From positions 55,749 to 119,748 of the IMG/VR virus record IMGVR_UViG_3300042371_001161: DNA of 64,000 nt, one strand, 5' to 3'. The position numbers were made by a program, and so were the translations under genes. The notes beneath the pieces are model-generated. The model was given only the letters and a program-made list of their open reading frames with translations. It was not told where the DNA came from and made no database searches. Positions 1 through 39,700 of this stretch are shown here, in pieces. The first letter of the stretch is position 1. Each line of letters opens with the position of its first letter. The DNA is from a virus.

Positions 1-833
1 CTCCGGGAATGCCAGGAATGCCGCCGGGAATGCCGGGAATGCCTCCAGGTGTGCCAGGAATGCCCCCAGGACCAGTTCCGCCGGGCGGCGAACCTGTACC
101 GCTGGACGTCAATACGATGGCTGGGGCACTTGCGGAGTCCGCAGCCAGTGGCCAGCTTGCGCAAACAACAACCCCACCAGAGGCCTTTGGAGGCGGCGTA
201 CAGGCTCCAATGCCCCCAGGACCTATGTCCGTGGCATCGTCGCCGGATAACGAGATACAGGTAAAGTCCACGGAAGAAAAACAAGAGACCAAAGACGCAA
301 TTGACCGCAATGAACAGGCGATAGAGCGATGGACGAACATTCTAGCTCGTGGCATGGAGAGAGTTATTGAGCGCCAGCAACGAGTAGTTCTTGAAAAGGC
401 AAGCGGGACAAAATCAAGGAAAGCCCTAATGCACGGCACGCTTGATATTGAATCCGTATTGTCAATAGATACGTGGAACAAGCAGTTCGATGAGGATATT
501 CGTCCTGTTGTGTCATCAATTATTAATGATTCTTTTGAATCGAGAGTTAATGACGCATCCACAAACGGTCTCAAAATCAAAGCCTTGCCAGCAAAAGATG
601 TTCGAGCAATGGTTGATGCACATACATTGAGAATTAAGAAAATTAACGAGTCTCATTTCAATGAAATTAACTCTTTAATGCTCAAATCTTTCGTGTATGC
701 GGATGAAGAAAAACGGTTTAGTTTCTTTCGCGATGGTCTCGTAGAAATGTTCACGGATTTTTTTGCGCACCAACAAGAATTACTGGCAGAGCGCGAGACA
801 AGGTCGGCATGGAGTTTCGGCCAGACAGTTTAA
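1..833 (+). CDS. portal protein, C-terminal part (partial at window start)
   Basis: The reading frame is open to the first base, so the true start lies outside the window. The visible part begins with a Met-Pro-Gly repeat (MPGMPPG units, about residues 1-27 after the first visible Met). A charged helical region follows (roughly residues 85-270), including RWTNILARGMERVIERQQRV. A Pro/Gly-rich linker followed by a helical tail of this type is common at the C-terminus of HK97-type portal proteins of actinobacteriophages. The next gene begins with a prohead protease, which is the canonical portal-protease order. The portal ring is the DNA entry vertex of the capsid. The core portal fold is not in view, so the call rests on the tail and context; a head-morphogenesis protein is the alternative. 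Confidence 0.6.
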   Translation, partial: PGMPGMPPGMPGMPPGVPGMPPGPVPPGGEPVPLDVNTMAGALAESAASGQLAQTTTPPEAFGGGVQAPMPPGPMSVASSPDNEIQVKSTEEKQETKDAIDRNEQAIERWTNILARGMERVIERQQRVVLEKASGTKSRKALMHGTLDIESVLSIDTWNKQFDEDIRPVVSSIINDSFESRVNDASTNGLKIKALPAKDVRAMVDAHTLRIKKINESHFNEINSLMLKSFVYADEEKRFSFFRDGLVEMFTDFFAHQQELLAERETRSAWSFGQTV

Positions 834-959: not shown

Positions 960-3900
960 ATGCCATCAGAATTGTTTGAATATAAGTCGTCTACGCTCGG
1001 GCACTCCGACTCCATCAATTTGGATGAAGCGCAGGGAATTGTCGAATGCTTCGTGGCTGGCATCGGCAACAAGGACTCTGTGGGCGACATCGTTGCCACT
1101 GGAGCATTCACGAAGAGCCTCCAACGCCGTAAGCCGCGCGTTGTCTGGGGACACAGTTGGAATGACCCCATTGGCAAGGTTCTAGAGATTTACGAAGTTC
1201 CGAACACGGATAATCGCCTTCCTATGAAAATGAAGATGGCCGGAATTGGTGGCCTGTTCGCTCGAGTTCAGTTCAATCTCAATTCAGAAAAAGGTCGCGA
1301 AGCATTCGCCATGGTCGCCTTCTTTGGCGAAGAGCAGGAGTGGTCGATTGGTTACAAGACACTTCGAGCTCAGTTTGACCAGAAATCCCAAGCAAATATC
1401 ATTTATGAACTTGAGTTATATGAGGTATCTCCGGTTCTGCATGGCGCAAACCAGCTAACTGGGACTATTTCCGTTAAGTCCGAAGAGTTGTCCGGTGGAA
1501 TCTTGATGTCCATGATGAACGAAGAAAACCCAATTGACAAGGCAGAGATAGAAAAGCAGCTTGCTGCAATTTTGGGCGCAAAAGTATCTTTAATGGAAGT
1601 TAACGACGAAGAGATTACGTTTGCGCGAAGAATGGACAACGGAGAAGTTGGCCGCTACAAGTGTGGATTCAGCAATAATCGCGGACATTATATGTTCGGT
1701 GCGCCGCGCCCCATTGTTGTAATGCCCGTGCGTAAGCCCATTGCTCCTGTAAGCGCAATGCCAATGGCGATGCCAGGTATGCCCCCAAATGAGCCACAAA
1801 GAATTGTTCGGCCTTCTCAAATGCCATCAATCCCAGTTGCTATTAAGCCAGGCGAAAACGGCAACCAGATAGTTCCTTTGCCACCAGTGCAATACGAAAA
1901 CGATAATGGAAGTCGATTTGACCCAAGTAATCTTGACCAAGAAGAAGCTGACTTAAGAGATGCTCTTTTAAAAATCGTAAAGCGTCACGGAAAGTTTAAC
2001 GAAGATTCCGAGGGAGTATGGGCAGCGTATACCCCTGCTGCACAAAATGAAGTTGCCGGAATCGGCGTCAAGTGCTCCAACTGCGTCTTTTATCAGGGTG
2101 GAAGCGCCTGCAAGATAATCGACATGGAAGTAGAACCTGAAGGTAAGTGTCGTTTTGCCGTCATCCCAAAGGGCGTTGTCAAGGGAGCCGGCTCAAAAGC
2201 ATATGAACTCGACGAGGAATTCGCCGAAGAAGATTACGTCGCTGACCTCGAGGTGAAATACCCCGGGGAATTAGCAGTTGCAGGACTTCGTGGAGTGGTC
2301 GGCAAGCGGAGAAAGAAGCGTCGGAGCTTTAAGTTCTTGAGTGAATTTGGTTCCAAGAGTGAAGATTTTGAAGACAAGCCATACTTACTTCCAGTTGTAC
2401 CTCAGTTCGCGTTCCAAGTAAAACAAGTTCTTGACCCAATCTTTGATTACCATGGTGTTGATTCTTACGTCGACACAAGCGGTATCTTCATGACTTCTGG
2501 CGTTACTTACGAATTGATTGAGGCAGTCGACAACGCTGTCGCAAATTTAAAAAAAAAATCCTTAAGTGAAAACAACCTAGAGTGGAAAGCAGCCGGGTAT
2601 CGCCTCGGCAGAGCTATCAGCAGTCGATTAATTGACCGCCCAAACATCGGCGGAGGTCGTTCTCGCGGTCGTTTCTTCACATCTGTGGGTGCGGAAGACT
2701 TTGACCCATTCACTGCACGCGACTCCAACCTTAACGGCATCGTAGGAGAGGGACTGTTCCTGCGTGGAGTTCCGCTTGCCGTAAATGACCCAACACCAGA
2801 TGGTCCTGGCTCTATTCGTAACCCCAAGCCATCCCCCAGGCAGGTTGCGAAGCCGAATGCTGCAGCAATTTCTCGAGCGGAAATTCAAGTAGAGAAAATA
2901 ACAAAACCTAAAGAGCGCCAGAAACTTTCCTCTGGAAGCGAGCTTGTAAATCTTCCGCGAATAGACGACCCGGATGTTGATTCGGCAGAAAAATATGGCG
3001 CAGCAGAGTCGCAGCGTGACGAGCTTCAAGGCGTTTTGGATGGAGCATCAGATTCTGACCAAATAAAGAAGTTAAAGAAGGCCATTGCGGAAATCGACAA
3101 ATACATGGAACGTGTCGAGAAGATGGCCGAAGGCGAAATGGCTGATACTGAAAAGCCAAAGAAAAAGCCCGTAAAGAAGCAGGTAGAAAAGACCAGTCAG
3201 GGTCTTTCAAGCGGCTACGGCAAGTATCTAAATAAGCCCGAGGCGAAGCGGACGCAAGACGAGCGCCGCAAATATGACGGCCCCCTGTCCTCGCTTTCAT
3301 CAGGAAAGTTGGCAGACAAGGCAGAGCTTCCCGAAGGCTCCAGCCAGCTTGAAGAGTTATACAAGGAAATGGCAAAAGATATTGTCGCTATTTTGCAGGA
3401 ACTCGCCAACAATCCAGACGCATCAAAAAGATGGGAATTGCCATGGCGTAATGCCGAGAATTATGCGCGGAATCCAACTAGTGACCGCATCTACCAAGGC
3501 ATGAATCAGATGATTTTGTCCCTTACGGGCTCAGCTCGCGGCTACAAAATGAATCGATGGGCCGGAGAGGGACAGTGGAAAAAGTTAGGCGGCAAAGTAA
3601 AACCGGGAGGCAGAAACAGGGGAGTGCAGGTTCTCGTTCCTCGTGAAGGACGAAGCTTTACTGATTCAACTGGCAAGCAAGTTGAAATGGGTCGCTACTA
3701 TTCTGTTCAAACGGTATACAACGTCGATGAAATTGCAGGACTCCCAGAAAGTTTCTACGAGCTTGGTGATGTAGAAATAAACCAAGAGCAACGGTTGCAG
3801 GATATAGAAAATGTCATTAAGGAAATAGGTCCTTCTTTTGTCGAATCTCTAGGCTCGCAGGCTTTTTATCGCCCCGCCACCGACAAAATTCATATGCCTG

Positions 3901-6900
3901 CATTTGAACAGTTCAAGGATGCTTTGGCTTTTTATGGAACTGCAATGCATGAGACAATCCACTGGACATCGCATCCGAGTCGACTCGACAGAAAATTGGG
4001 GAAAACGTTTGGAGACGAAGATTACGCCTTTGAAGAACTTATTGCAGAAATAGGCTCCGCGTTTGCAATGGGCGCAATGGGCCTTGAACCAACGATACAA
4101 GAAAACCATTTGCTTTACCTAAGTAGCTGGATAAAGAAACTACAAAAAGACCCGCTAGCAATTCACCGGGCCATTCTGCAGGCGCAGAAAGCAAATGACT
4201 ACATAATGGACCGCTCTGCCACAATGCGCAAGCTCGCAGGTATCCCTGACGGCGAACGCAAGGGCAAGGACTCGGGCTGGTTTGAAATACCAATGATTGC
4301 TGGATATCCGGGTGGAGAAAAAATAAAGTCACCAACAACAATCACGGGACCAATGGAAGACCTGCTTGACATGGAGCAGTACGACGAACTTGTTCCGGAT
4401 GCTCGAAATCTAAGTATCGAAGAGCGCGAAATGCGCTCCTTCCAGATTCATCCAAATGCTATACGCAGGAACAAAGACGGCGTAGTAATTACGCCATCTG
4501 GAGCTTTGGCAAGCGGCAAAAAGGCTGGCCCAATCAAGAGCAGGAAGGGCGCTCCCGACGTAGAGCGCACCGATGAAGATATTTCCATGAAGTTTGCGTT
4601 CGGCTTAAGTAATGAGCCAACAAACGAGCAGCGAGACATTATGGATGTTGTTATGCGTCTTGTTCGTGAGAAAAACCCACAAATCATGTCTATTCTTGCT
4701 GGTGCAGGAACAGGAAAAACTACAACCCTGAAGAGTATTGCATGGGCGTTGGCTCGTGAATTCAACCTATGGCCAGAAGGCGACGAGCGTCGCAAAGAAC
4801 AACTCAAGTATTTAGCAGATAGATATAAGATTGATTTTAGCAAGATGTCTTCAGAAGAAATTGCGTTAGCAGTAGCAAAACTTGCAAAAGACAACCCCAT
4901 GGGCAATATGTATTACACGGTTTTTAACACAAAAAACCAGCATGAAGCCGAGAAAGAATTCCCTAAAAATACGGGTATAGCCACGACCGACAAGCTTTTT
5001 CTTTGGTCTCTAATGCTAGGTGGTGGCGACAAAAGATTTGGTCCTGCGTTCCGTAGAAAAATGGCAGTCCAGAAACTTAAAGCAGATAACTCAGCCGCCG
5101 GAAGCGGTAAAGATAATCCAAAATTTATAAGTAAAGAAAAAACTCCAGATGAACCAAGGAGAATTGGTTCCGATTTTGTTCGCGAACATTTTGATGGCAC
5201 GATTGAAACATTTGTAGGAGAGGAGCCTGGTTACAGGACCCTTGGTTGGCAGAGACTTGATGATGCCGTGGACTGGATTAAATTCCTTGGGATAGACAAA
5301 TGGCCCGACCAGCAAACCAGAAGAAGAGACCGAGTACAGAAGGACTCCAAGGGCAGAACAGTCCGTGACGCCAACGGCAAAGAAGTTCGTGAACAATACG
5401 ACGAGTCAATATTTATTCTCCCTGATGGAAGAGGAACAACACAAGTAACCACTGAAGAAATGGCCGATATTCTCAGTAACGCTCTCGGAAGATGGGAAAT
5501 ATCAAAAGAAGAAAAAGCAGCAGCATGGATGTTTACGCCGTCGGCATATCGTGCAGAGGGCCGCACCACCCCTAAAGGCCAGGGAAAAGACATTCATGTC
5601 GTGGACACGGTCCTCACAGAGGACCAAGTACCCAAATTGTGGGTTGAGGCCCTCCAGCAAGCGATAGATGCAATGATGGACGGCAACAGCAACATGATTC
5701 CGCGAAGGGACTCTGTTCAAAAACTATGGCTACTTTCGAATCCGGACTTAAGAACCGACCCTGGCCTCATAACGCATTCTGAAAATCAAACAAGAAACAA
5801 AGTGCCGATACCGAATACATACAAAGTTGGAGACAAGTATGTTGACGAGAACGGTGAAGAATGGATTGTGGCGGGAACCTCGCGAGATGGTTCAAGTAGC
5901 AAAGTAAAAGCAAGACTTGCCAAGCGGGTTGCCACTGTCGAGAATCCACTCAGCGCGTTCATGGTAGACGAGTCTCAAGACTCTAATGAAATTTTGGAAA
6001 CCGTATTAGAAAACAATAGAAAAAATCTTCCAATAATTTTAGTGGGTGATGATAGACAGGCTGTTTATGCTTTCCGCGATGCGAAGAACATACTTGATTC
6101 CCTTGATGCTGAATATTCGCTATCAATAACCGAATCATTTAGGTATGGACCAGTCGTCGCTCACTTAACCAACATGGCACTTGGTCGACAGAACCTCTAC
6201 CTGAGAGGACAGGAAGTTCCGCAGTCAATGGACTGGAAGCATGTGAAGGGTCAGGCACAAGAGGTCATAAACATGTTGTTTGACCCAGTGCTTGCAAAAA
6301 AAGACAGAAAAGGCGCAAATCAAGTTCCAGAAATCAACGACAAAACACGCGCCCTGATTATCGACGATATTGAAAAAAGATTTTCAACACCAGATAAAAA
6401 AATTGAGATATCTGACAAGACCAGAGTTGCTCAGGATGCAATTCTAAAACAACTACGCGACGAGCTCTACGATGAAAGAGAAGGAAAAATAGTCGACTTT
6501 GTTGAACTCGCCAATCAAGGCATCTTCCCAGACGCCATTTTAACAGGGACTAATGCGGAAATTATAGACTGGGCCCTCAAGTTCATTGACCTAGTCATCA
6601 ATAGGCCGAACGCCGAAAAAGACGAAAATGGATTCCCAAAAATACCAGAAGTAGTTATTCCAGCCAAAAAACATGAAGATTTGTTGGCATTTACTATTCA
6701 ACTTGACTACATCATGAAAAGTCCAGAACAGCAAGCGGCATACGAAAAAATATTTGGGGGACGTCCCCCTGAATCCCAGTGGCTTGGGCCAGTCTGGACA
6801 CAGGGAAGACTTCAACAATTACTTAAACAATCCAGGTCCCAACAGCTAACCACCGCATACAGACTCATAACGACAGCCCCACCAGGACAAGCGCCTCTTG

Positions 6901-9623
6901 GAACTCGCGGAATGCTCACCCTTCTTCGGGGTGAAAATATTGTTGAAGAAGTAAACGGCAAACAAAAAATTCGCACCGTTCCTGCGGTGCTATTGCCAGA
7001 AAGAAAAACTCAACAACTAAACAATTTTACTGGCGATGACTCAGACCCATCAAAAGGTGTCAGGGCAGTAGTTATGGGAATATCTCGCGGCACCAAAGCG
7101 GCAGAAGCAGAACAGGCGAGTGATAGTCAGCGTAAAAAAATAATTATAATTCCTCAACCAACTGGAGCCACCGATGGAAGGTCGGCTGTTTATGCACAGC
7201 TCGAAATTAATGGTGGTAGCAGTACGAAACCAGGAAAGCCAACCGGCAAAATAATCATTACTGGAGATGGCGTTGATAGTAATCGGCCAAAAATCAACGA
7301 TGATGGTTCTGAGTCAAGAAACAAGGCACCCAATCAAAGGGTTGGTAACGGTAGATTCAGAAGGAATCTCGAGAAAATAATTCAAAGATATGGACTTCAA
7401 GACAAGGTTAAGCCCAAAGAAGAGGCAGAGGGGGCCATGAAGGGAGGTTCTAAGCGTCGCCTGTATGACGGTTGGGTGATTGAAGGAGAAACTCTACAAG
7501 AAAGTTCGGACATATTGGAACTTCTCGGTCAGGCTCTTCGTGACGAAGCAAAGGAAGTTGGCGGAGATGTTCAAATAACCACGATGGCACTGAGCAAGGG
7601 GCGGGAATTCGACTATCTCGTTATGGCGGACGACATTGACGACCCTGATGACTTATTGCCTCAAAGTACACCGAAGGGTGAGGCTTCCATAGGATGGATG
7701 CAGGCAACGAATCTCATACATGTAGGCCTTTCACGTGCTAAAAAAATGATAGACCCAGGAGCAAAGACCTTTGCCTTTTATTTGCACGACCAGAAAACGA
7801 AGCCAGTTCGCGAAGCGATGGCTCAAGCCGTAAAAGATGGACACATCCCAGAAGGGCTCGACAGAGGAGCATTTGGCGATGAGGGCGGAATACCGCTGCC
7901 GGACTTCTATCAAAAACTAAACGCCATGCGCGTCGAAGATATCAATTTCGACAACCTCCCTGCAAGGGGCGGCGCAAAACCAGACCCATCGACAGGCCTG
8001 TCAAGTGGAGCGGGTAGTGGCCCCAAAAATACACCAACTCGTCGCGACGGCAGACTCAATAGAAGAGGGTCGTCAGGCGGCAGTAGAATTTACGATGGCA
8101 GCGGAAGCGCACAAGAAATTGCTGGCATTCGCTTTAGGGGTGACTTAAAGTCGCCAAAAGAGCAAGCCAAGTTGAATTTCTCAATGAACGTGTGGAAGCG
8201 TTTCCGTGACGTCGGAATAGCAATAGATGTGGACGACGATGCATCAGAAACCGAAGCACGCAAATCTAAAAACGCTGCAACAATAAAGTCAGTTGGTGCA
8301 GAGATGAAGAAGCGCCAAAACCTCGTTCGTGTCGGCAGAGTGGGCGACAATAACGTGAATGACGCTCCCTCGGCGCTGACATGGATGCTGTCCGTGGACA
8401 AACTTGCTGAAACTCTAAGAGTTCCGACCGAATTTGTTTCCGCCAATAGGGACGGGAAGAGTTCGCTACAGTGGACTCAGACCCGCCCGGTTACACGCAA
8501 AGAGCTTGCAACACTTCTTGGCTTGAATGGTCCAGATACGGCAGCCCTGGAAGCGCCGGACGCCGGCATCAACCATGATGCTGTCAGACTGCTTATTGCC
8601 GAACTCGGCAAGCAACCAGAGCTGAGCGCATGGCGATACTTTTCCCCAGTTAGCGCCGAAGAAGTAGCAAAGATTATCCCGCCATCACCCAGTGGTGATG
8701 TTGAAGGATTCTCAAAGATAGACCTTGCTTTGGAAAATGTTGGTCGCGCAAACATGCGTGACAGGTTCATAATCGAGACCTTCGGCAAGGACGCGTTCCC
8801 TCATTGGTTCGACCCGGAAGAGGGCGAGTCCATAACGCCAGACGAATACAGCAAGCTTGGCGAAATTAGCGCAGTGTCTAAATTCCGCGCAACTGGTCGC
8901 TTTGACCCAGAGGACCCGACCAAGGGCGACTCAGAGGCAGAATACGACCTCTACGGAGAGCTTATTGATGGCGTTCTGCCTAGTGCGGAACCAGATGGTG
9001 AGATAATTAGTGGAGACAAAACAAGCAGAGAAGATTTTGAATTAGAGCAGCTTCTGAAATATCTAGGAATCGATAGACAAGAATGGAAGACGACCCTTAA
9101 AGAACGAATGTCTGCTGCTTTCGGAATGGATGCCGTCGGAGCATGGGACGAATGGAAGAAAGACGGAATACCAACGGCCACGGTCGCTCACATGATTAGA
9201 ACTGGGTTAATACCTAACGCCGCTTCAGTCTGGAAAGACGCGTCCACGGGCGAAAGATTTGACAACGAACTGAAGAAATCAAAATACGCCGTGTATGAAG
9301 CATTAAACGAATTTATTGACAAGAGTTTTCCTGATAGCAAGCTCAATAGCCAAGCCAGTCGAAACAAGATAACTGGAAGAACTGACATGGGTGTTGCGTT
9401 AAGAGATGCTGCGACGGCAAAAGGCTCGGCATGGTCTCCGAAAAAAGGAAACGAAGCAAGATTCTCTGACTCAGAATTGCAATCAATAGTTGACAGATTT
9501 AATGAAGTGTTCGGAACCAATCACACCATCGATGACATATTTAGCGCCGAACAACTGAGAACTGCCGCAGAAAGAATTGAGTCTGGTGAAACCTTGTCTG
9601 GCAAAAAGAGAAAAGTAAGTTAG
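960..9623 (+). CDS. P1: prohead protease fused to ArdC-like / zincin / SF1 helicase polyprotein
   Basis: A 2887-residue protein, far longer than a normal prohead protease (about 200 aa). Residues 1-170 resemble HK97-family prohead protease, with His65 (WGHSW) and Ser129 (EWSIGYK) as likely catalytic residues. A four-Cys cluster follows (Cys372, 375, 384, about 398; HiPIP or zinc-like). Residues about 800-1060 resemble ArdC: an N-terminal ssDNA-binding part and a zincin with HETIH at 997-1001. Residues about 1215-2270 form an SF1 UvrD-like helicase with NEQ Q-motif, Walker A GAGTGKT at 1248-1254, Walker B VDES near 1669-1672, and GDDRQAVYAF. The last 540 residues are not recognised. LSSG occurs at 656, 749, 779 and 2347, with LASG at 1183, mostly between these domains. 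The first Met follows an AAGGG ribosome site. The likely role is capsid maturation plus delivery of anti-restriction and DNA-processing modules; self-processing at LSSG is inference. Confidence 0.85.
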   Translation: MPSELFEYKSSTLGHSDSINLDEAQGIVECFVAGIGNKDSVGDIVATGAFTKSLQRRKPRVVWGHSWNDPIGKVLEIYEVPNTDNRLPMKMKMAGIGGLFARVQFNLNSEKGREAFAMVAFFGEEQEWSIGYKTLRAQFDQKSQANIIYELELYEVSPVLHGANQLTGTISVKSEELSGGILMSMMNEENPIDKAEIEKQLAAILGAKVSLMEVNDEEITFARRMDNGEVGRYKCGFSNNRGHYMFGAPRPIVVMPVRKPIAPVSAMPMAMPGMPPNEPQRIVRPSQMPSIPVAIKPGENGNQIVPLPPVQYENDNGSRFDPSNLDQEEADLRDALLKIVKRHGKFNEDSEGVWAAYTPAAQNEVAGIGVKCSNCVFYQGGSACKIIDMEVEPEGKCRFAVIPKGVVKGAGSKAYELDEEFAEEDYVADLEVKYPGELAVAGLRGVVGKRRKKRRSFKFLSEFGSKSEDFEDKPYLLPVVPQFAFQVKQVLDPIFDYHGVDSYVDTSGIFMTSGVTYELIEAVDNAVANLKKKSLSENNLEWKAAGYRLGRAISSRLIDRPNIGGGRSRGRFFTSVGAEDFDPFTARDSNLNGIVGEGLFLRGVPLAVNDPTPDGPGSIRNPKPSPRQVAKPNAAAISRAEIQVEKITKPKERQKLSSGSELVNLPRIDDPDVDSAEKYGAAESQRDELQGVLDGASDSDQIKKLKKAIAEIDKYMERVEKMAEGEMADTEKPKKKPVKKQVEKTSQGLSSGYGKYLNKPEAKRTQDERRKYDGPLSSLSSGKLADKAELPEGSSQLEELYKEMAKDIVAILQELANNPDASKRWELPWRNAENYARNPTSDRIYQGMNQMILSLTGSARGYKMNRWAGEGQWKKLGGKVKPGGRNRGVQVLVPREGRSFTDSTGKQVEMGRYYSVQTVYNVDEIAGLPESFYELGDVEINQEQRLQDIENVIKEIGPSFVESLGSQAFYRPATDKIHMPAFEQFKDALAFYGTAMHETIHWTSHPSRLDRKLGKTFGDEDYAFEELIAEIGSAFAMGAMGLEPTIQENHLLYLSSWIKKLQKDPLAIHRAILQAQKANDYIMDRSATMRKLAGIPDGERKGKDSGWFEIPMIAGYPGGEKIKSPTTITGPMEDLLDMEQYDELVPDARNLSIEEREMRSFQIHPNAIRRNKDGVVITPSGALASGKKAGPIKSRKGAPDVERTDEDISMKFAFGLSNEPTNEQRDIMDVVMRLVREKNPQIMSILAGAGTGKTTTLKSIAWALAREFNLWPEGDERRKEQLKYLADRYKIDFSKMSSEEIALAVAKLAKDNPMGNMYYTVFNTKNQHEAEKEFPKNTGIATTDKLFLWSLMLGGGDKRFGPAFRRKMAVQKLKADNSAAGSGKDNPKFISKEKTPDEPRRIGSDFVREHFDGTIETFVGEEPGYRTLGWQRLDDAVDWIKFLGIDKWPDQQTRRRDRVQKDSKGRTVRDANGKEVREQYDESIFILPDGRGTTQVTTEEMADILSNALGRWEISKEEKAAAWMFTPSAYRAEGRTTPKGQGKDIHVVDTVLTEDQVPKLWVEALQQAIDAMMDGNSNMIPRRDSVQKLWLLSNPDLRTDPGLITHSENQTRNKVPIPNTYKVGDKYVDENGEEWIVAGTSRDGSSSKVKARLAKRVATVENPLSAFMVDESQDSNEILETVLENNRKNLPIILVGDDRQAVYAFRDAKNILDSLDAEYSLSITESFRYGPVVAHLTNMALGRQNLYLRGQEVPQSMDWKHVKGQAQEVINMLFDPVLAKKDRKGANQVPEINDKTRALIIDDIEKRFSTPDKKIEISDKTRVAQDAILKQLRDELYDEREGKIVDFVELANQGIFPDAILTGTNAEIIDWALKFIDLVINRPNAEKDENGFPKIPEVVIPAKKHEDLLAFTIQLDYIMKSPEQQAAYEKIFGGRPPESQWLGPVWTQGRLQQLLKQSRSQQLTTAYRLITTAPPGQAPLGTRGMLTLLRGENIVEEVNGKQKIRTVPAVLLPERKTQQLNNFTGDDSDPSKGVRAVVMGISRGTKAAEAEQASDSQRKKIIIIPQPTGATDGRSAVYAQLEINGGSSTKPGKPTGKIIITGDGVDSNRPKINDDGSESRNKAPNQRVGNGRFRRNLEKIIQRYGLQDKVKPKEEAEGAMKGGSKRRLYDGWVIEGETLQESSDILELLGQALRDEAKEVGGDVQITTMALSKGREFDYLVMADDIDDPDDLLPQSTPKGEASIGWMQATNLIHVGLSRAKKMIDPGAKTFAFYLHDQKTKPVREAMAQAVKDGHIPEGLDRGAFGDEGGIPLPDFYQKLNAMRVEDINFDNLPARGGAKPDPSTGLSSGAGSGPKNTPTRRDGRLNRRGSSGGSRIYDGSGSAQEIAGIRFRGDLKSPKEQAKLNFSMNVWKRFRDVGIAIDVDDDASETEARKSKNAATIKSVGAEMKKRQNLVRVGRVGDNNVNDAPSALTWMLSVDKLAETLRVPTEFVSANRDGKSSLQWTQTRPVTRKELATLLGLNGPDTAALEAPDAGINHDAVRLLIAELGKQPELSAWRYFSPVSAEEVAKIIPPSPSGDVEGFSKIDLALENVGRANMRDRFIIETFGKDAFPHWFDPEEGESITPDEYSKLGEISAVSKFRATGRFDPEDPTKGDSEAEYDLYGELIDGVLPSAEPDGEIISGDKTSREDFELEQLLKYLGIDRQEWKTTLKERMSAAFGMDAVGAWDEWKKDGIPTATVAHMIRTGLIPNAASVWKDASTGERFDNELKKSKYAVYEALNEFIDKSFPDSKLNSQASRNKITGRTDMGVALRDAATAKGSAWSPKKGNEARFSDSELQSIVDRFNEVFGTNHTIDDIFSAEQLRTAAERIESGETLSGKKRKVS

Positions 9624-11509: not shown

Positions 11510-14500
11510 GTGGCGAATACCCCAGCAATGCGGGAAAGAGTAATAGTTTCAGCACAACTCATGGTGCCGTCTTCGTGCTGCGGCGACTTCAATGAAAAGG
11601 CAGTTCTTTTCAGGCAGTCGATTAACTCGTCTCTGTCAACTGGAAAACTTCAGGCCGAGCTTGTCACAAAAACTATTACAGAAGGTTTTGGCATACGCGT
11701 AAAAGCCGATGTCGATACCGACGGGAAAAAACGAGAATTCACCGGAGACAGTCGACCTGGTGTCGAATCCAATGAATTTGGATATAGATGGGAAACGGGA
11801 GGAAAGTGGGAACCCGGTTCGAGGCTTGTCTTGAGCCCTCCTTTTCAATCTCGCGAGGGAATGGGCACAGAGCCCAACTTTGGCTGGTTGCCGCCGGAAG
11901 ATAAGTCAACGACAACATTTGAAGAAATGCTTCGGGCCTATAGGGAAAAGCCAAAAATAAAGTTAAGCAAATACAAGGTAAATCCAAGGACAGATGAGGT
12001 CATACCTGATTCCGAAAAAATCATTGACCCATTCGGAATAGCGGCAGGGCTTAGCTATGAAGAAAAACAGCAAGCCTTACGTAAAAATGAAAAAAACACC
12101 CTAGAAGAAAAAAGATTACCGGGTCGCAGTCTTGAATCCAGAGTTCCAGGAGGCTCGCTCCTTTCGCGAGCTGCAGCCGTGTTTGGCATCCTTCGTGACG
12201 AAAACAATAAATTTAGATGTCCTCCAGGAACGCCTGCAGCAAATCAATTTACAGACGCCACTGGAGCAAACTGTTTTGGATTCAGTGCATCGAAATTCTC
12301 TCGCTTTGCAGCGCGACAGGCAGCCAAGCTCACTGCCCAAGGTGAATATACGGGATTGCGCCAAAACGCCGCAGACTTCTTCAGATGGATACATGGCCCC
12401 AGGTCGAAAAGAGACCCTGCTCTTGCGGAAAAGTGCGCCTACTGGGGAATCAAAATACCGGAATGGCGAGACATCGCCGTCCCAGAGAATTTACGTTTAT
12501 TTAAAAACGGAGCCATTCGTGGTCAGGATGATATTGCTCGTCAAAAAGCCGAAGTTGTGCGCATGTACGACGCATTGGGGATTGACGCCGACGACCCAGA
12601 TGCTCCGGTTAAGGCGCTTAAAAAACTAAAAGAAATGCATTCGCAAACAGGCGGCACTGCTGGCTGGGATGTGCAAGTTCTTGATGTTTCCGGAAAAGGG
12701 GACGAGCTATTAACAGATGTAGAAATAAAAGAATTTGTAAAAACAAGACTCTCATCTACTCCTGGCTGGAACAGGCTCTCTAGTAAAGAACAAGAAAGAC
12801 TATTGAAGTCTGATTTTGAGCGATACAAGACCACTCAACGAGCAATGCTTGAAACCTTACTTGACCAATTCATGACAGACCCAGGCAGCATGCGTGGGGT
12901 TGGTCGAATTGAATTCAACTTCATGACAGATGATGAAGCTGGTACGTCCTTCTATAGAACGCAAAATGGGATGAAAACGGCAATACACATCAATATGGGG
13001 ATGATTAGTGCCAATCAAGAAACCATGCTTCCGAACATGGGCGGAGACGAGCGTTTAGCAATATCTGCTATTGGTGCTAGAAGCGAAGCAGAAGGACGAC
13101 TTGCGGTTGCTGATTTCATGGTAAATGCAGACCATACGGCCAGAGGCATGGCCGGCCTCCTTGATGGCGTGTATGGATTTTCAAGTCATATCATGCTCCA
13201 TGAAATAGCTCACCACAAACAATCTCAAGTATTCCTGGACAAAATACAGAAAGAAATTACAGAAAAAGGTTTCATTTCCGTTGCGGTCAGAAATAAAAAA
13301 GGAGCTGTTGTTGGCGAGCGTGAAGTTAAGAACATCAATAGCCTGACAGGCTCCGACCTTATGTCAATAATGACTGGCATTGCTGACTCAATCAATATTG
13401 AATCGCTAAATGACGCAATGACCAGAATCCAGGCAATTGCTCCATTGGCTGGGGCATACCCGCGTGATGGATACGCTGTAGGTTCGGAAGTATGGGCGCT
13501 GGAAGCATCTGCCGAGATTTGGGCACTACGCGAACGCGGAATTATCTTTGGCGACGATGTTGACGCTGCTCTTGAGTGGATGGACAACATGTCCTTCTCT
13601 GTGGCGGCAAGAGACCGAACGGCAAGTGATGACACAGATGGTCAGAGAAAATTAGATGACGTATTTGATATTCCCGCGGACCCCGTTGACCCAGGTTCAG
13701 TATCAGATGAAGACATCGACGCGCGAGCTACCGCCGCAATCCGTGAAGAACTTAAGCGATTCAAAACAGAGTTCTCCAAATTTTCAGAAGAAGAAATGTT
13801 TGAAGAGGCAGCAATCATTGGCTCTCAGCGTGACGCCAGTGCCAGACGGCTGGAATTATTAGAGGTAGAAGAGATAGAAGACCCCTTTTTCCCGCTTACC
13901 ACATCAGGAAAAATCGTTCGAGACATACTCAAGGCTGATGCAGTGCGGGAAGCCAAGAGAGAATTTGATTTTCACGCAAAACGATACGACGAGGCGTCAA
14001 AAATTTGGCGCAAGAAGTACGGTATAGGCGCTAGTGGTGAAAGAAAAAGATTTGATGATGAGGTCTACTCGATACGTAAGCGAGAAGGTCTGCTTGATTC
14101 AAAAGAAATGGCCGATATTGCTCGCAGGGCCGACCTCGATGATTTGCGCGACAGAGTTAAATCAATGCCCGAAAAGAAAACTATCAGCCTCTTGGTTGAC
14201 GACAAGGTAAGACTCTCGAAACTCGACTCTTCGTCTGATGAATTTAAGAAATTGGCCGACGAGATTGAGGTCATTAGAGAACAGTACGTAGAAAATATGA
14301 AGTCCGCAGGAGATACGCGGACTAAAGCACAAATCAAAAAAGAACTTGATAAAAAAGTCAATGACATCATAAATCCACCATCGAAGCCTAAGAAGAAATT
14401 CAAGAGCGCTGATGAAGCTCGAAAGCACGGCGCAAAAGAGCGCGCCCGAGTAAAAGCAACGCCCGAACAAAAAAAGGCTATGAAGGAGCTTGGAGATGTA

Positions 14501-17500
14501 GCGGAATCAGATGTAGGGATGCTTCTTGACCCGGTTTCGCAAACAAGAGCCGGCCGAGCAATAAATAAGCGCAACGCACGCCTCAAAAAGCTCGGCTTAA
14601 AGGTAGATAAAACATCTTCTGAAGAAGGAGATGTCGTTCAGCAGGTAGAAAATCTACTCATACCGACGATGGAGGCAATCGATGGGACGTCGGTAGGCGA
14701 ACCATTTGAGATGGAAGCAATAATTGACTTTGAATCTGGTGTTTTGAAGGGGAAAATAGATGGCAAAGAAGTCAGCCTGGACCAGTTCATTTCCGGAAGA
14801 GTCATAACAAGTAGGACTAAAAAAACAGATATGCCGGAACGCGGAAAGCGTGACCCCAAGTCCGGAAAAACCAAGCGGCGAGTTATTCTTTCCGTGCGTG
14901 AAAAAGACCGCGGACTATTCCCAACTACGGGAGGGGATTCGGAGCAGAAATTTGTTGCTCCGCCGGGGAGAATAAGAATAATTGGCAGAGATGCTGACGG
15001 AACTATCCGTGCAGAAATTTCATATCAAAAAGATACTGTAGAAGTCGTCGACTCATTGGCGGAAAATCTCTCCAAGAACACGACAGACGCAATCTGGGCT
15101 AGAAGTCATGGCAAAAAAATTCAAGCCATGGCGGACAAGTACGTGACCAAGCGACGCTCATCTGGGAAAGCAGGCCCTGGACCACGAAGTGATTCTGACG
15201 AGTCTGCCAGCACCCGAAGTAAGGCGACTTTAGATAAGGTTACTGATGCTGGCGGCTCATTTGCCGATTACGACAATCCAGACAGCGGCTCAGGGGCCCT
15301 CTCTTCTGGAGCCACCACGCCCGATGGAGTACTAGGGAAGCCATCTACGCGTCAGCAAAGAACAGAGTCACGTACGGCGGCAAACTCCTCAATTATCAGA
15401 AACATAAAAGACGTACTAGGCGGTGGCGGGAAAGATGGAGCCATATCTCGTGGGGATATTCATCCAGAGGTGGCGAAATTTATAGCCGACACTCCGGAAG
15501 AAGAAATCATAGCCAAGGCAGCTGAAACCGCCTACAGAATGCATGAGGGTTTTGATAGAAGAGTTCGCGTTAGGGCAACAGATTCGGACATAGATAAACT
15601 TGCATCAGGCGCTGGTGTGCGCTCCCCGTTTTCCGTGCCATCAGCGGATGGTTCTCGCCCAACAAGAAGAGCGCAGAGACTTGCACAAATGGGACCAGAA
15701 GAACGTTCCGAAAGACTTTCTTCAGGCAGAACGATAGATACAAGCGGAAGCCTGGCCGAACGTAGGCGTCAAGAGGGGGAAGTCGCAAAAAAGGCTTTGG
15801 AAGTTTTCAATGATGTTGTCGATAGCGGCACAAATATTAACGACATGTCCGATGATGAGATATCTAAAAAGTTCGGTGGAGCGGTAAGGCGTTCTGGCAG
15901 GCGTTCGATTAGCGAGAAGGACTCGAATCTATACGAAGTCGACGACGTTCATACAGCCGTAGCAATGATGATGCTTGGACACCACGTCGAAGTTAAAGAA
16001 CAAGACATACGCCTAACCGAACAAGCACAGAAAGCCTTTGAAAAAGAAGTTAAAACAGTTGCAAAAAATCACATAAAAGACAATCATCCAAAATGGCGCT
16101 CATTCCAGGAAGACTATGCAAAGAGAAATCCTGATGCGGACCTAAATGACCCCAAGACGCGCGAATCCATGGAGGGTGAATACATCGGCAATTATCAGGC
16201 GGACCTATGTTCCCTATACAACCCGGCGAATAACCTTATGTGTTCAGGGCATATCGGTATTGACAGAGAAAAAATGCCTCAAACAAATGGGCGGTCATCT
16301 GGCCACAAGACCAAAGCAATTCGAGCACTAAAAAATGGGATTGCAGCAGGTAAATGGGAACCATCAAAGGACGAGAACGGCGACCCGCTCGTGTCTAGAG
16401 ATAGGGGACTTGAAATAGAGTTTGCAGACGAACTAGACAAAGCAATAAAAAAACAAAACGCTAAACGCGCAGAAAAAGGAAAGCCTCCCGTATCTGATGA
16501 GGAAATATCTGGAATCCTGTACGGAATCATCGCCGACAAGCACTCATTAAAGAACGAAATGGGCGGGAAGACGGCAGCGGAGCACAGGGCAGATTCTTTT
16601 TCTACACTTTCAGATAGAGCGAAAGAGTGGCTTTATGAAAATACTGACTGGAATGATACCGAGGTAAACCTTGAAACACCATTTATTGATTGGCTTAACG
16701 GACTAATCAAGGTTGATGACCCAGAAAATGGTCCTGCAGTTAGACGTCGTGATGTGGACCCAAGTGAGTATGCCCCTTCTCAGCAACAAATAGTAGCTAG
16801 CAAGGCAGATGGAACCGCTCAAACGGTTCAAGAAAAAGCAATTGAAGTAGCAGAAAAAATAAGAAAAGATAACCCTAAGATATCTGACAAAGATTTTAGA
16901 GATAAATATTTAGAAGAAATGCGAAAAGAATGGTTCATGCAACCAATTCTCACAACAAAAGATTCATATATTCTCGATGGACATCATAGATGGGCTGGAA
17001 TAGTCGTCGCGAATAGGTCATTATCAGAAGAGCTTCAACTGCCACTCTCAGCAAACGAAGTACAAACAGACATTATTGAAGGACTGACCCTGGGTAAGGT
17101 TTTCCAAGATGCATTTGGAATCAAGGAAGCTCGCTTGGGAGCGGAAAATCGATGGGAAGTTGGCGAAATTGAAGATATGAGCGCTGATGAGTTTTCTGAT
17201 ATCGCCAAGGACTTAACGGATAACGCCCCAAGCTTAATCGACGCAAAATATGAACAAGGGGATTACATCCAACTTGGCTCAGTGGGTCTCACAAACAATC
17301 CAGATTATGCAGCAAGGTCCAAGGAAAGGCAAGCTACTGCCGCTCGAGATGAAACTAGAAAAATAGCCAGCGATGTTGTTGCAAAAGTCCGTAAGCGCGG
17401 CAAACCTCTTCACGAATACACTCCAGAGGAGCTAAAAGAAGATTTTGGTGACTCAATAAAGCCAAGCGACCTAAAGCCTTTGTTCACTAGCGCGGACCCC

Positions 17501-24736: not shown

Positions 24737-26086
24737 ATGTCGCAAGACAATTCCCGTACCGAGGAGCTTCAATCAGCCCTCCGTCAGAAGATGGCAGACA
24801 ACAAGACCATCGCTGACTCATTCAAGGTAGAAGACGGCACAGTAGTCGTCACTACGGAACAGAAGACCGCGTTCGACAAGAACATGCGAGACATCAAGGA
24901 AATCAAGTCGCTTCTTAGTGACCTTGATACCATGAAGTCAGTCGACCAGTGGGGCTCACAGCCTGCAGGCGAATCAGCCGCAGCAATGTACGCTGCCGCT
25001 GCCGCAGACCTCAGTCACTTGTCTTCACGTGAAATCAAGAGCATCGGTCAGCTATTTCTTGATTCTCCGGAATTCAAGGCACTCAATGGTGGTCGCAATG
25101 GCGCAAACATGGTTGCCCCATGGACCGTCGCTGCTTCACTGACGACCCAAGGAATGTACAACGTCAAGGATGTCTTCTCGGCAACCCCGACCGGCACCCC
25201 TGGTTCGTTTGGAACGATTCAGCGTGACCCGATGGTGACCCCGCCGACCCGCACAAAGCGCGTTCGCGACTTGTTCCCGGCCCGTAAGACCAATGCTGCT
25301 GTTATCGAATACTTCCGTCAGTTGGGTTTCACGACCCTACAGACGGGCCATGGTACGAACAGCGCCTCATCGGTTGCTGAGCGAAATAGCGGCAACACCG
25401 CCTTTGGCCTCAAGCCACAGTCGTCGTTCGCCTTCGTTGGTGAGCAAGCCCCAATTCGCACACTCGCACACTGGGAAGCTGCACACCGCAACGTTCTGTC
25501 GGACGAGCCGCAATTGCGTTCAATCATCGACAACGAACTCATGTACGGTCTCCGTCTCCTTGAGGATAATCAAATCCTCAATGGTGATGGCGTCGGCGAG
25601 AACTTGCTTGGTGTTTTGAATACCCCCAACATCCAGCAATACGCCTGGTCAGATGGAGAAAACTCCCCGGTCGCAGATACAAAGGCCGATGCACTTCGTC
25701 GCGCCGCAACTCTCTCGTTCCTTGCTTACTACGAGCCATCTGGCGTCGTACTGCACCCGAACGACTGGGAAGACATCGAATTGACCAAGGATGCCAATGG
25801 CCAGTACCTCATCGCAGTTTCGGTTGCAATGGGTGGCGAGCCACGCGTCTGGAGAATGCCGGTAATTGATACCCCAGCAATGACCGCTGGCAAGGCCCTT
25901 GTCGGAGCATTCGGTACAGGAGCACAGTTGTACGACCGCGAAGAGGCGAGCATTCGTATCTCTGAGCAGCACTCGGACTTCTTCATCCGTAACGCAATCG
26001 TGATTCTCGCCGAGCAGCGTTTAGCTCTCGCAGTGAAGCGTCCCGAAGCGTTCGTTGAGGTTACCTTCGACAACGAGCCAGCCTGA
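24737..26086 (+). CDS. major capsid protein (HK97 fold)
   Basis: 449 residues, start ATG with a strong ribosome site. Residues 1-75 are charged and helical, as in a delta/scaffold domain. An Ala-rich linker leads to LSSR at 95-98, near the expected maturation cut. The rest matches phage_capsid proteins: TPTRTKRVRDLFPARKT, an E-loop-like region with repeated Ser/Asn/Gly, LMYGLRLLEDNQILNGDG (the LLxGDG capsid signature), GVVLHPNDWEDIELTKDANGQYL, and a C-terminal RPEAFVEVTF strand. It forms the icosahedral shell. It is flanked by its own leader and a terminator, consistent with high separate expression. The fold assignment is confident; the cut site is inferred. Confidence 0.93.
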   Translation: MSQDNSRTEELQSALRQKMADNKTIADSFKVEDGTVVVTTEQKTAFDKNMRDIKEIKSLLSDLDTMKSVDQWGSQPAGESAAAMYAAAAADLSHLSSREIKSIGQLFLDSPEFKALNGGRNGANMVAPWTVAASLTTQGMYNVKDVFSATPTGTPGSFGTIQRDPMVTPPTRTKRVRDLFPARKTNAAVIEYFRQLGFTTLQTGHGTNSASSVAERNSGNTAFGLKPQSSFAFVGEQAPIRTLAHWEAAHRNVLSDEPQLRSIIDNELMYGLRLLEDNQILNGDGVGENLLGVLNTPNIQQYAWSDGENSPVADTKADALRRAATLSFLAYYEPSGVVLHPNDWEDIELTKDANGQYLIAVSVAMGGEPRVWRMPVIDTPAMTAGKALVGAFGTGAQLYDREEASIRISEQHSDFFIRNAIVILAEQRLALAVKRPEAFVEVTFDNEPA

Positions 26087-33580: not shown

Positions 33581-33904
33581 TTGGAATCAGTCAGTAGGGT
33601 GGACGTAATGCCGCGAGGCGGAAAATGCACGGGACATAATCCAAATATATGGTTCCCTATGGCTGACAAATCTCAGCCTGGTCAGTTTTCTGAAAATTAC
33701 AGACAGGCCAGAGCAGATACTCAAATTGCTAAACAAATATGCGGAACGTGCGAAATTAAAATTGAATGCCTCTCGTATGCTCTCTATCATGAGATGTTTG
33801 GTATTTGGGGAGGGACATCCGAGCGCGAGCGTCATAGAATGCGGAGACAAATGAACATCGTCCCCGTACCTAAGATACCATTCAACATACTCCTACCTCA
33901 TTAG
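33581..33904 (+). CDS. WhiB-family Fe-S transcription regulator
   Basis: 107 residues from TTG 33581, chosen because GGAGG lies 5 nt upstream. Cys16, Cys54, Cys57 and Cys63 match the four cluster ligands (C...CxxCxxxxxC), followed by GIWGG at 74-78, the turn that contacts the sigma factor. The basic ERERHRMRRQM segment after it is the DNA-contacting part. WhiB proteins are essentially limited to Actinobacteria and their phages. They bind the main sigma factor, so this one may redirect host transcription. Confidence 0.92.
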   Translation: MESVSRVDVMPRGGKCTGHNPNIWFPMADKSQPGQFSENYRQARADTQIAKQICGTCEIKIECLSYALYHEMFGIWGGTSERERHRMRRQMNIVPVPKIPFNILLPH

Positions 33905-36770: not shown

Positions 36771-39700
36771 ATGTCTGTAGATAACAATGAGTTCCACATC
36801 CCCTTTGAGGAAACGCGTCGCGGTGTAGATTCAAACACCGAAGAAAAGGCCGCCCTCGGTCGGCTGGGGCGCTATTTGGGCTCCAGAGCCACAAACAGAC
36901 CCACTATCGGCCAGAGGCGAAGAGGCAGGGGCGGTGGTCGAGGGGTCGAAATACCTACCGGCGGCAAGCCAGGCACACGAAACCCAACGGGCTCGCGAAG
37001 GGACGTCGATGGAGACGGCTGGGCTGACGAAGGAACCAAGAAGCCGGTATGGGTGGGGATGGGGAATACGGAGCCCGCATCAAAACCAAAGCCTCAAGCG
37101 CAAAGACAAACAGCGAAAAGAACCGAGACAGAAGTTGCCAAGAAGCTATCCAGTGGATTGGAGCAACTGTCGCCGTTAGAGCGTTACGACTATGGTCCAG
37201 TGGTTGCTGCCAAAAAAATCAAAAGCAAAGACACCGAATACAGGCTAGTCATTAGGAATGACTTTGATATTGGCATCTATCTTGAATCAGATTTCAACAA
37301 AGCACGCGACGTTTTAGTCGAGAGATTCAACAAACTTGGAGCGAACCCCTTCAACGATAAGCCATCTCCATTGGGTCCGGAGGATATCGACGACAGGGAT
37401 GTTCTGAGGTTCATGCTCGACAACGATAAGACCATAAAAACCATGTCGGCCATGCAAGTATGGTCGCCCGGTGGCGGCAGTCGAACTGAAGTTTTTCAAA
37501 TCAACACAAGACCCAAACACCAAAGACGTGGTCTCGCAGCAGAGATGTTCAATACACATAGGGAAACTTTCCCTGAGTTGGACCTTCAGCACAGTGATGC
37601 GTTGAGCGAGGATGGTCGAGCATTTTCAAAAGCAGTACCGGCTACGTCCAACATGGAATCCCCAGATAGGCCGTCCAGTCTTTCGTCTGGAAAAAAATAT
37701 CAAGAGCTTGTCGATGCTCAGCCAGAATTAACCGAAGAAAAGTTGCGTCAGATAGACGAGCTTAATGAATTATTAAGAAGCGATTTACTTGATAGCGCCG
37801 ACTCGTATAGTGAAGATACTGATGTATTTGGCACAGGAATAGATATTTTAAATGATTCACCAGAGCGTGCAGCACAAAGAAAAAGAGTGCATGATTTATT
37901 ACGTGAAATTTTTAGTGGAGAAATTGAGTTAGAGGAAGACATCATCGTCACCGCTACTAATGGCGAAAAAATAAATTTAGGAAAAACTGTTGTTGTTGAT
38001 GTTGCTGAATCTTTCGAAGCCCTTGGCTGGCAGGTGGAGATAGACGAAGTAAGTGAAGAAGATATACAACTAGTCCAAGACCAAACTTTTGAACCATTTC
38101 TTTCAGCCGATTCAACCGGCATTGGCCTAGCCGCAAGATTTCAATTCAAACTAACCCCCACTGCCGATGCCGCAGAACGACTAACTGCAGCCGGGGTGCC
38201 AGATGAAATGATTTGGGATGAGATGATGTCGGTTGGGCCCGGCACCCAAGGAGAAGTGCAATTTGGTCGCTCCGCAAGAATGCTTTCGTATTTTCCTGGA
38301 GATAAACCAACGGCGACGATGCAGCATGAGACTTTCTTTCTGAATTCGGAGTCTCAAGGACACGGCATAGGAAGCGCATTCAATGCAAGAAATGAAAAAA
38401 TATACGAAGCTATCGGTCAATTAAAAATATTTGCAGCGGGGACGTCCAATACCGAAGAATCCATTGGGGCGACGCACTGGCCTAGAAATGGATTCACGTG
38501 GGCCGGGGAACCAGGGAAACAAACTTTTCTTGGGACAATCGCAGAAGCCCTCGATGATACTGAACAGAACTGGTTTAGTCCGGAAGAGAAATCCCGGATA
38601 TCGTCATTAATACGGAAAAATCCTGATACGGGCTTATTTGAAACTGACTCAACCCCAGAAAATCTTCTCAAATTCCAACGAGCAACGGAATTATTCAAAG
38701 AAAAAGAATTGTCGATTCTTTACGTGCGTGAAGTATCCAAGAGAAAGACTCCAGCCGGCGCACTTTCCAGTGGGCGCATCGGAACCGTAAAAACAGAACC
38801 AGTCGAGATGATGCGTTCAACGGAGTTTCCGAAACTAGGTACTAAATTAATTGATTCTGGCGGTACGCCCGACCCCACCTCTAGTCAAAAACAATATATG
38901 GAATTCCCGGTTTACGAAATTGACGGGAAAAAATTTGCGTTTGGCAATACTGACTTGGGCCGATTCCAGCCTGAGTTCAATACCGAAGATATAGAGATAG
39001 TCCCTCTAAATCCTTACGCAATTGTCGGACTGCCCAAAACCTCCACCGAAGGACAAGAGTGGGCGTTGAAAATGTTTCATGCGATTCAAGCAGTTTCTCT
39101 TCTTGACGACATTGAGGCTGGGCGTGTTGGCAATAGAAAAGTTGGCCTAGTCGCAGCTTTAACTTATGCTGCGAAGCGGGGAGATAAGCCTGCCCTAGAA
39201 GAACTGGAACGTTTGGCAAAAATTGGTGAGGAGCTTTTAGTAAACAACCGACGAGATTTCGTATCGGCTGCGAAGGTGTACAACGAACAGATGTGGGACG
39301 TTGACGGCACCTATTGGGACGACACGCCAAATATGCAAGTCGTTCTTGGCCCGACAAGAACCAATGAATACGGCGACACCGTCCGCACAACAAGAGCACT
39401 AGGCATCGATGACATGTTTCTTGTTCACCAAACATCATATAAGCCTCAGTATGATGACGACGGCAATATTATTCTTAAACCAACCGGGGATTTTATCCCA
39501 ATTGACCCCAATACTGGCGAGCAATTATTGGACCCCATATCAGGCAAGCCAGTCGCCATGCCAGACCGCGATTCCATACATATGACCCTTAATCACATGG
39601 TCAAGGGTCATATGTGGAGAAATGAGCCCACGGAATCAACAAGCGTTATCATCGTTCCACTAAGAGACGTACTTGACGCTAACCCCGGCTCCTTGGACAA

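What the first reader, a model, noticed from the sequence alone, without database searches (positions are those of the whole stretch)
960..9623. Prohead protease fused to an anti-restriction and helicase polyprotein
P1 begins with an HK97-type prohead protease (His65, Ser129), continues with ArdC-like ssDNA-binding and zincin modules, and then a complete-looking SF1 helicase. A maturation protease is normally a short single-domain protein that acts inside the procapsid. Fusing it to effectors would bring them into the procapsid by the same route and allow self-release. Polyvalent proteins carrying ArdC, helicase and peptidase domains are known in phages (work of Iyer, Aravind and colleagues); the fusion to the maturation protease combined with LSSG spacing is what stands out.
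Basis: partly seen in the sequence, partly recalled or inferred. Interest (0 to 1): 0.85.

Follow-up and report, generated by a model that had tools for sequence, protein, structure and literature searches.

The report
Phage protease-led polyprotein with cut code
An uncultured virus of (probably) freshwater actinobacteria makes its capsid-maturation protease as the front end of a giant protein that also carries anti-restriction and helicase enzymes, and this protein and three other giant proteins are punctuated by the same four-letter peptide, whose variants change together within each virus genome, as expected if one protease cuts them all apart.

Summary
The 2,887-aa ORF (960-9623) is intact in independent contigs. 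It carries a prohead protease (S78; His65 and Ser129 invariant), a full-length ArdC (matches solved pSa ArdC, 1e-40), an SF1 helicase with all motifs, and a C-terminal domain of unknown fold. It holds the only S78 found in the record, directly after the portal gene.

The larger finding is the tetrapeptide. [LF][SA]SG occurs 24 times in four giant proteins (P1, P2, P3, tape measure) against 1.2 expected, and at chance in the other 105 ORFs. Sites avoid folded domains (1 of 64 inside, 20 expected). Coding 12-mers differ. The preceding residue is uniform per genome across separate genes (RLSSG 18/18; GLSSG 13/13), and more distant relatives use other repeated motifs (RFSSG, LRSSG, GLAS, GFAS, GMRS). 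P1 and P3 share a leader module.

Best reading: a self-processing polyprotein system whose reader is probably the P1 N-terminal protease unit; code divergence tracks that unit rather than the P2 zincin or capsid protein. Not shown: cleavage, virion location, the enzyme. The capsid protein does not follow the code, and tape-measure sites argue against action only inside procapsids.

The parts
960..9623 (+). P1, 2,887-aa polyprotein: S78 protease, leader module, ArdC, SF1 helicase, C-terminal domain
1038..1469 (+). prohead protease domain (Peptidase_S78, residues 27-170; His65, Ser129 invariant)
   Evidence: Pfam 1.2e-11, PHROG 4.5e-26; alignment; only S78 in the record
2592..2816 (+). leader module in P1 (about residues 545-619), homologous to the N-terminus of P3, before the first LSSG
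   Evidence: hhalign 99.65% probability, E 5e-25; hmmsearch finds it only in P1 and P3, plus one weak hit (0.005) in a 600-aa ORF cut by the end of the fetched stretch in G037
2925..2936 (+). LSSG site 1 (residue 656)
3204..3215 (+). LSSG site 2 (residue 749)
3294..3305 (+). LSSG site 3 (residue 779), 20 residues before ArdC
3354..4229 (+). ArdC: ArdcN plus zincin MPTase (residues 799-1090)
   Evidence: Pfam 1.7e-15 and 1.7e-39; PDB 6SNA 1.1e-40
4506..4517 (+). LASG site (residue 1183) between zincin and helicase; an LSSG lies in the same inter-domain region in L005
4623..7799 (+). SF1 UvrD-like helicase (about residues 1222-2280)
   Evidence: Pfam 4e-11; phrog_1967 7e-25; motifs
7998..8009 (+). 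LSSG site (residue 2347) after the helicase
8097..9620 (+). C-terminal domain of unknown fold, conserved in relatives
   Evidence: alignment; model pLDDT 75 with no fold match
11510..20059 (+). P2, 2,849-aa protein with LSSG at residues 1264, 1403, 2477 and LASG at 1364; zincin HEIAH near residue 564
36771..46688 (+). P3, 3,305-aa polyprotein with 10 LSSG, 1 FSSG, 1 LASG; N-terminal leader module; RNase_T exonuclease 2506-2697; zincin HEYGH near 1821
36852..37097 (+). leader module of P3 (residues 28-109)
24737..26086 (+). major capsid protein; N-arm L[ST]S at residue 95 does not follow the code
9..833 (+). C-terminal part of the portal protein gene directly upstream of P1
   Evidence: PHROG portal 2e-63 for the whole ORF in L015

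Best explanation
P1 is a self-processing polyprotein. Its N-terminal unit (S78 prohead protease, adjacent region and leader module, residues 1-655) recognises the sequence (R/G/K/S)-[LF]-[SA]-S-G, probably cutting after the second Ser (hydrophobic-x-Ser), in the linkers of P1 and in trans in P2, P3 and the tape measure protein. This frees ArdC (anti-restriction), the helicase, an exonuclease and other modules as separate enzymes. The leader shared by P1 and P3 would dock both in the assembling particle, as the T4 capsid-targeting sequence does, and be cut off at the following site. The freed enzymes would be delivered with the DNA and act early in the host. Shown here: the modules, the motif, its enrichment, linker placement, concerted change between genes, the shared leader, and better tracking of the code by the P1 N-terminal unit than by three other phage proteins or domains. 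Inferred: that the motif is cut, where it is cut, by which enzyme, and the delivery.
For: Enrichment: 24 [LF][SA]SG in P1, P2, P3 and the tape measure versus 1.17 expected, and 3 versus 2.79 in the other 105 ORFs; the F-type relative G042 has 24 versus 1.28, and 0 in the other ORFs. LSSG is the first or joint-first over-represented tetrapeptide in nearly all relatives with polyproteins; FSSG replaces it in G031 and G042, and the overlapping RLSS is first in two R-type genomes. Sites lie outside Pfam domains: 1 of 64 inside, 20.0 expected, often 7-21 residues before ArdC and at helicase edges. Selection acts on the protein: 18 of 18 coding 12-mers differ in the record of the window. Concerted change: the residue before LSSG agrees between P1 and P2/P3 of one genome in 0.471 of pairs versus 0.214 when genomes are permuted, 2 of 20,000; RLSSG 18/18 in G032, GLSSG 13/13 in G035 and 14/14 in G033; L replaced by F in P1 and P2 of G031, and in its near-identical longer contig G042 mostly in P3 and in the tape measure too. 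More distant S78-led proteins carry other repeated motifs: RFSSG, LRSSG (2 in P1, 5 in P2), GLAS, GFAS, GMRS. Tape measure proteins carry the motif near residues 42-50 and 570-613 in most genomes examined. P1 and P3 share a leader, E 5e-25. Code divergence measured in P2 and P3 alone tracks S78 (partial r 0.26, p 0.008) and the next 355 aa of P1 (0.36, p 0.0025), not the P2 zincin, capsid protein or a 670-aa ORF. Family precedent: the prohead protease of SPN3US cuts after A-X-E at P3-P2-P1 with Ser preferred at P1' (PMC10052503) and cuts ejection proteins; T4 gp21 trims internal proteins, two of which carry a targeting sequence (PMC9958956).
Against: No cleavage, no virion and no host were observed. 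The S78 core is nearly identical between phages whose sites are mostly F and those with only L (L257 versus L263), so S78 shows no clear switch residue. The capsid protein, the classical substrate, does not follow the code: it keeps L[ST]S in the F-type phage and lacks it in the GMRS and LRSSG phages. Tape measure proteins are not procapsid components. A P2 zincin is present in every P2 examined that carries the code and remains a candidate. The partial Mantel tests rest on 16 genomes and are known to be liberal. The AlphaFold model of S78 was poor (pLDDT 58) and gave no useful match.
Confidence: 0.58

Rival explanations
1. LSSG is a processing site, but the enzyme is a zincin: the metallopeptidase in the N-terminal part of P2 (HExxH near residue 565) or, less likely, the ArdC zincin in P1. 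S78 only matures the capsid.
For: The P2 zincin motif is present in all P2 proteins examined in the LSSG group, and in code-bearing outgroups whose P2 was seen. Outgroups without HExxH in P2 (L341, L342, L335) have a short unfused S78 and none of these short codes. Iyer et al. 2017 propose that such metallopeptidases process polyvalent proteins. Tape measure sites lie outside the procapsid. The capsid protein does not follow the code.
Against: Code divergence does not track the P2 zincin once S78 is accounted for (partial r 0.09, p 0.21; 0.03, p 0.41). The ArdC zincin is missing from the P1 of G033 and G035, which have the code.
Confidence: 0.22
2. A host protease reads the sites; the code changes because the phages move between hosts.
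For: A host enzyme would also give one code per genome and act on tail and head proteins alike. The host is unknown, so host shifts cannot be excluded.
Against: The code is restricted to four giant phage proteins, and its change tracks the P1 N-terminal unit and not phage relatedness as measured by the capsid protein.
Confidence: 0.1
3. LSSG is not cut. It is a binding or docking motif, for example a scaffold or chaperone ligand that spaces long proteins for packaging.
For: Short linear motifs in linkers that co-vary between genes could also be ligands; no cleavage was seen. The motif has information only over about six residues.
Against: Position at module borders fits excision. In G037 the ArdC module sits on a separate ORF, so joined and separate forms are interchangeable. 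The form hydrophobic-x-small followed by a small residue resembles prohead-protease sites.
Confidence: 0.08
4. An ordinary polyvalent protein; LSSG is a common flexible-linker sequence without function.
For: Linkers are rich in Ser and Gly; polyvalent proteins with ArdC and helicases are known.
Against: 24 versus 1.2 expected after shuffling that keeps composition; exact tetrapeptide with L or F required; concerted change between genes; different codes in outgroups.
Confidence: 0.02

Closest known systems
Polyvalent proteins of phages and conjugative elements (Iyer et al. 2017, PMC5512222)
   Same: Large multidomain proteins with ArdC-N, zincin MPTase and helicase domains; peptidases proposed to process them; assemblin-like peptidases noted in some.
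   Different: [quoted passage not shown] here S78 is N-terminal and is the only S78 gene found in the record. The passages read describe no repeated, genome-specific cut motif shared by several proteins.
T4 internal proteins IPI-III and Alt with prohead protease gp21
   Same: Targeting sequence, then a cut by the prohead protease, then an injected anti-host protein (IPI* inhibits a restriction enzyme).
   Different: In T4 the protease and each cargo are separate small proteins with one N-terminal cut; here protease and cargo share a chain with several sites.
SPN3US / phiKZ prohead proteases
   Same: One protease cuts several head and ejection proteins at a short motif (A-X-E or S-X-E) with free P2.
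   Different: Motif ends in Glu, not Ser-Gly; SPN3US gp245 is a 263-residue protein; cuts remove propeptides rather than divide enzymes.
Phage P1 Dar system (DarA, DarB, DdrB)
   Same: Large anti-restriction proteins in the virion; DarB packaged by an N-terminal signal; DdrB processed before packaging.
   Different: No protease-led polyprotein and no repeated code described in the passages read.
Bendigovirus (Gordonia phages Gray, DalanDe, GMA6) and Brevibacterium phage Cantare
   Same: Closest cultured S78 relatives (about 39% identity) in a similar head cassette; DalanDe gp27 (1,633 aa) is a long protein with S78 in its C-terminal part.
   Different: No LSSG code; no N-terminal protease joined to ArdC and helicase.

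Membership tests
Peptidase S78 (HK97-type prohead protease) | Sequence match over the family cut-off | tested here: met
   45.4 bits against a cut-off of 21
Peptidase S78 (HK97-type prohead protease) | Catalytic His and Ser | tested here: met
   His65 and Ser129 invariant in the sequences aligned
Peptidase S78 (HK97-type prohead protease) | Gene between portal and major capsid protein | tested here: met
   portal directly upstream; capsid protein about 15 kb downstream of the end of P1, with P2 and others between
Peptidase S78 (HK97-type prohead protease) | Herpes-protease-like fold | tested here: inconclusive
   model pLDDT 57.8, no meaningful match
Peptidase S78 (HK97-type prohead protease) | Cuts the capsid protein N-arm | not testable with these tools
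   a conserved L[ST]S lies at residue 95 but does not follow the code
ArdC antirestriction protein | ArdC-N plus C-terminal zincin with HExxH | tested here: met
   Pfam both domains, HETIH near residue 997, full-length match to 6SNA
SF1 UvrD-like helicase | Motifs I to VI present | tested here: met
Polyvalent protein | Several conflict domains in one long chain, in a virion-gene neighbourhood | tested here: met
Polyvalent protein | Packaged and injected with the DNA | not testable with these tools
   no virion data
Prohead-protease-processed internal protein (T4 IP type) | Shared targeting module before a cut site | tested here: inconclusive
   module shared by P1 and P3 before or near the first sites; targeting itself untested
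Prohead-protease-processed internal protein (T4 IP type) | Cut by the prohead protease shown | not testable with these tools
   only indirect, by co-variation

The most novel reading that the evidence does not exclude
A large group of uncultured actinophages uses a true polyprotein strategy, as picornaviruses do: one protease at the front of a giant protein cuts itself, two further giant proteins and the tail tape measure at a short code that each phage lineage has evolved separately (RLSSG, GLSSG, KLSSG, RFSSG, LRSSG, GLAS, GFAS, GMRS), releasing a cocktail of anti-defence and DNA enzymes for delivery.
Probability: 0.5. Interest if true: 0.88.

Novelty: new variant of a known kind. Interest (0 to 1): 0.76.

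Why it matters
Polyvalent proteins have been proposed to be cut into working parts, but no cut code was known to me and none was found in the papers searched. Here the sites can be read from sequence and differ by lineage, so protease specificity, module borders and the order of release become directly testable. It would give a tailed-phage parallel to viral polyprotein processing, a natural series of protease and site variants, and a rule for dividing giant phage proteins into functional units.

Tried and rejected
Capsid protein as a covarying substrate: rejected on present data; L[ST]S stays in the F-type phage and is absent in the GMRS and LRSSG phages. DNA-level repeat: rejected, coding 12-mers differ. 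A specificity residue in S78 explaining L to F: none found; both residues occur together in many phages and S78 is almost unchanged. Fold of the P1 C-terminal domain: fair model, no match in PDB or viral library. Same code in cultured Gordonia, Brevibacterium and Streptomyces phages: not found. P2 in cultured phages: no match. S78 in bacterial genomes: only distant copies, mostly in Streptomyces and related genera, no host for this group. Papers on an LSSG motif: none.

Full report
What is there. P1 (960-9623) is an intact 2,887-aa ORF. It is full length in independent contigs at 100%, 70% and 68% identity. From the N-terminus it holds a Peptidase_S78 domain (27-170), a region with a CxxC cluster, a leader module (about 545-619), three LSSG sites (656, 749, 779), ArdC-N plus zincin (799-1090), LASG (1183), a UvrD-like SF1 helicase (about 1222-2280), LSSG (2347) and a conserved C-terminal domain. 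The ArdC part matches solved ArdC along its length. The window is part of a 119,748-base virus record. The portal gene lies directly upstream, and the S78 in P1 is the only one found in this record; seven other records searched likewise show a single S78 place (most of these records are fragments). A WhiB-like protein in the window and S78 relatives in Gordonia, Brevibacterium and Streptomyces phages point to an actinobacterial host; that is inference.

The motif. In the whole record, [LF][SA]SG occurs 24 times in P1, P2 (11510-20059), P3 (36771-46688) and the tape measure protein; shuffling gives 1.17. The other 105 ORFs have 3 against 2.79. Over 249 sites from 17 genomes, information is confined to about six positions: a genome-dependent residue, L or F, S, S, G, then R, A or K. 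Coding 12-mers are almost all different, so selection acts on the peptide. In seven P1 proteins with Pfam maps, 1 of 64 sites falls inside a domain, against 20.0 expected. The domain spans used for this were partly joined by me from several Pfam hits and motif positions, so the expected number is approximate.

Concerted change. In the related genomes whose P1 is complete, P1 has 0 to 14 LSSG sites. The residue in front is uniform within a genome even across separate genes: R in 18 of 18 sites of G032, G in 13 of 13 of G035 and 14 of 14 of G033, mostly K in G039, mostly S in G030 and G023. Other genomes, including the one in the window, are mixed. Agreement between P1 and P2/P3 of one genome is 0.471, against 0.214 for permuted genomes, reached in 2 of 20,000 permutations. 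G031 has no LSSG but FSSG at six sites in P1 and P2; the longer, near-identical contig G042 shows FASG/FSSG in the tape measure and mostly FSSG in P3. Wider searches gave S78-led proteins with other repeated motifs: RFSSG, LRSSG, GLAS, GFAS, GMRS; GFAS and GMRS rest on four sites each, and GLRS in L245 and the motif in L271 on four and two looser matches. Read together they suggest hydrophobic-x-Ser as the core, with the next residue free outside the LSSG group. The L-to-F change is gradual rather than a clean switch, since several phages mix both.

Which enzyme. S78 is present in every member. Among 16 genomes, divergence of the code measured in P2 and P3 only is tracked by S78 (partial r 0.26, p 0.008) and by the next 355 residues of P1 (0.36, p 0.0025), not by the P2 zincin, the capsid protein or a 670-aa ORF (simpler versions). 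This favours the P1 N-terminal unit as reader, but partial Mantel tests are liberal and the zincin is close to saturation in distance. Against it: the S78 core is nearly invariant, the capsid protein does not follow the code, and phages with no HExxH in P2 have an unfused S78 and none of these codes, which fits the zincin rival.

Leader. P1 and P3 share a module of about 75 aa (hhalign 99.65%, E 5e-25), found in every P1 and every full P3 N-terminus examined and, apart from one weak hit (E 0.005, G037), nowhere else. In P3 it is the N-terminus; in P1 it follows the protease. In most genomes it lies before the first site; in G039, G030 and G023 an earlier site exists, and in G039 that site is at residue 201, which would release a canonical short protease. 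By analogy with the T4 capsid-targeting sequence and the N-terminal signal of DarB it may direct both polyproteins into the particle. That is inference.

Joined and separate forms. In G037, ArdC plus zincin is on a separate, overlapping ORF with its own five sites; the P1 of G035 has the helicase but no ArdC; others have a second SF1 helicase region. Modules therefore move as site-bounded units.

Compared with what is known. Iyer et al. 2017 describe polyvalent proteins with ArdC, zincins and helicases, suggest peptidase processing, and note assemblin-like peptidases always at the C-terminus. SPN3US shows one prohead protease cutting several head proteins at A-X-E. T4 shows targeting sequence plus gp21 cut. 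New here are the N-terminal maturation protease joined to effectors, the repeated cut-like code spread over four giant proteins including the tape measure, and its lineage-specific, concerted variation. I file it as a new variant of a known kind.

Limits. No cleavage, virion or host was observed. Gene calls used simple open frames. Many contigs are fragments. The shuffle control keeps composition only; a control that keeps linker composition was not run, but the concerted change does not depend on it.

Noticed in passing
window 11510-20059, residues about 1410-2470: P2 holds two similar regions with DGHHRW (DSYILDGHHRWAGIVV and DKYLLDGHHRWSAITV), like a duplicated ParB-type domain; one weak PHROG ParB hit (0.0013).
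   Followed up: no
window 36771-46688: P3 contains an RNase_T exonuclease (residues 2506-2697), a zincin HEYGH and motifs resembling acetyltransferases (HQRRGLAAEMF, QGHGIGSAFN); only the exonuclease is supported by a Pfam hit.
   Followed up: partly
L151 (G037): P1 ends after the protease part and an overlapping ORF carries ArdC plus zincin with its own LSSG sites: a natural split of the polyprotein.
   Followed up: partly
L158, L144, L139: Some relatives carry a second SF1 helicase region in the same P1 chain.
   Followed up: no
window 21210-23231 and 11510-20059: A cysteine motif (RCPPGTPAANQFTDATGANCFGF in P2; RCPEGYQYGGRFTDNRLSTCGAKLF in the 673-aa ORF) is shared by the two proteins.
   Followed up: no
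window about 2073-2153, 9754-11496, 27379-27852: Repeated CxxC clusters (CSNCVFYQGG, CDDCPGGC, CGNCSVF) in P1 and two other ORFs, reminiscent of small metal or iron-sulfur binding modules.
   Followed up: no
L341, L342 (downstream 2.4-kaa ORF): Relatives with a short unfused S78 carry a different repeat (RADFG within a longer repeated stretch) and no HExxH in P2.
   Followed up: partly
window 29702-31627, 33581-33904, 49516-49854: Ribonucleotide reductase-like, WhiB-like and thioredoxin-like ORFs, read by eye from the translations; WhiB suggests an actinobacterial host.
   Followed up: no
window 1-833: The C-terminal part of the portal has a PGMP/GMPP-rich repeat tail that recurs in relatives.
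   Followed up: no
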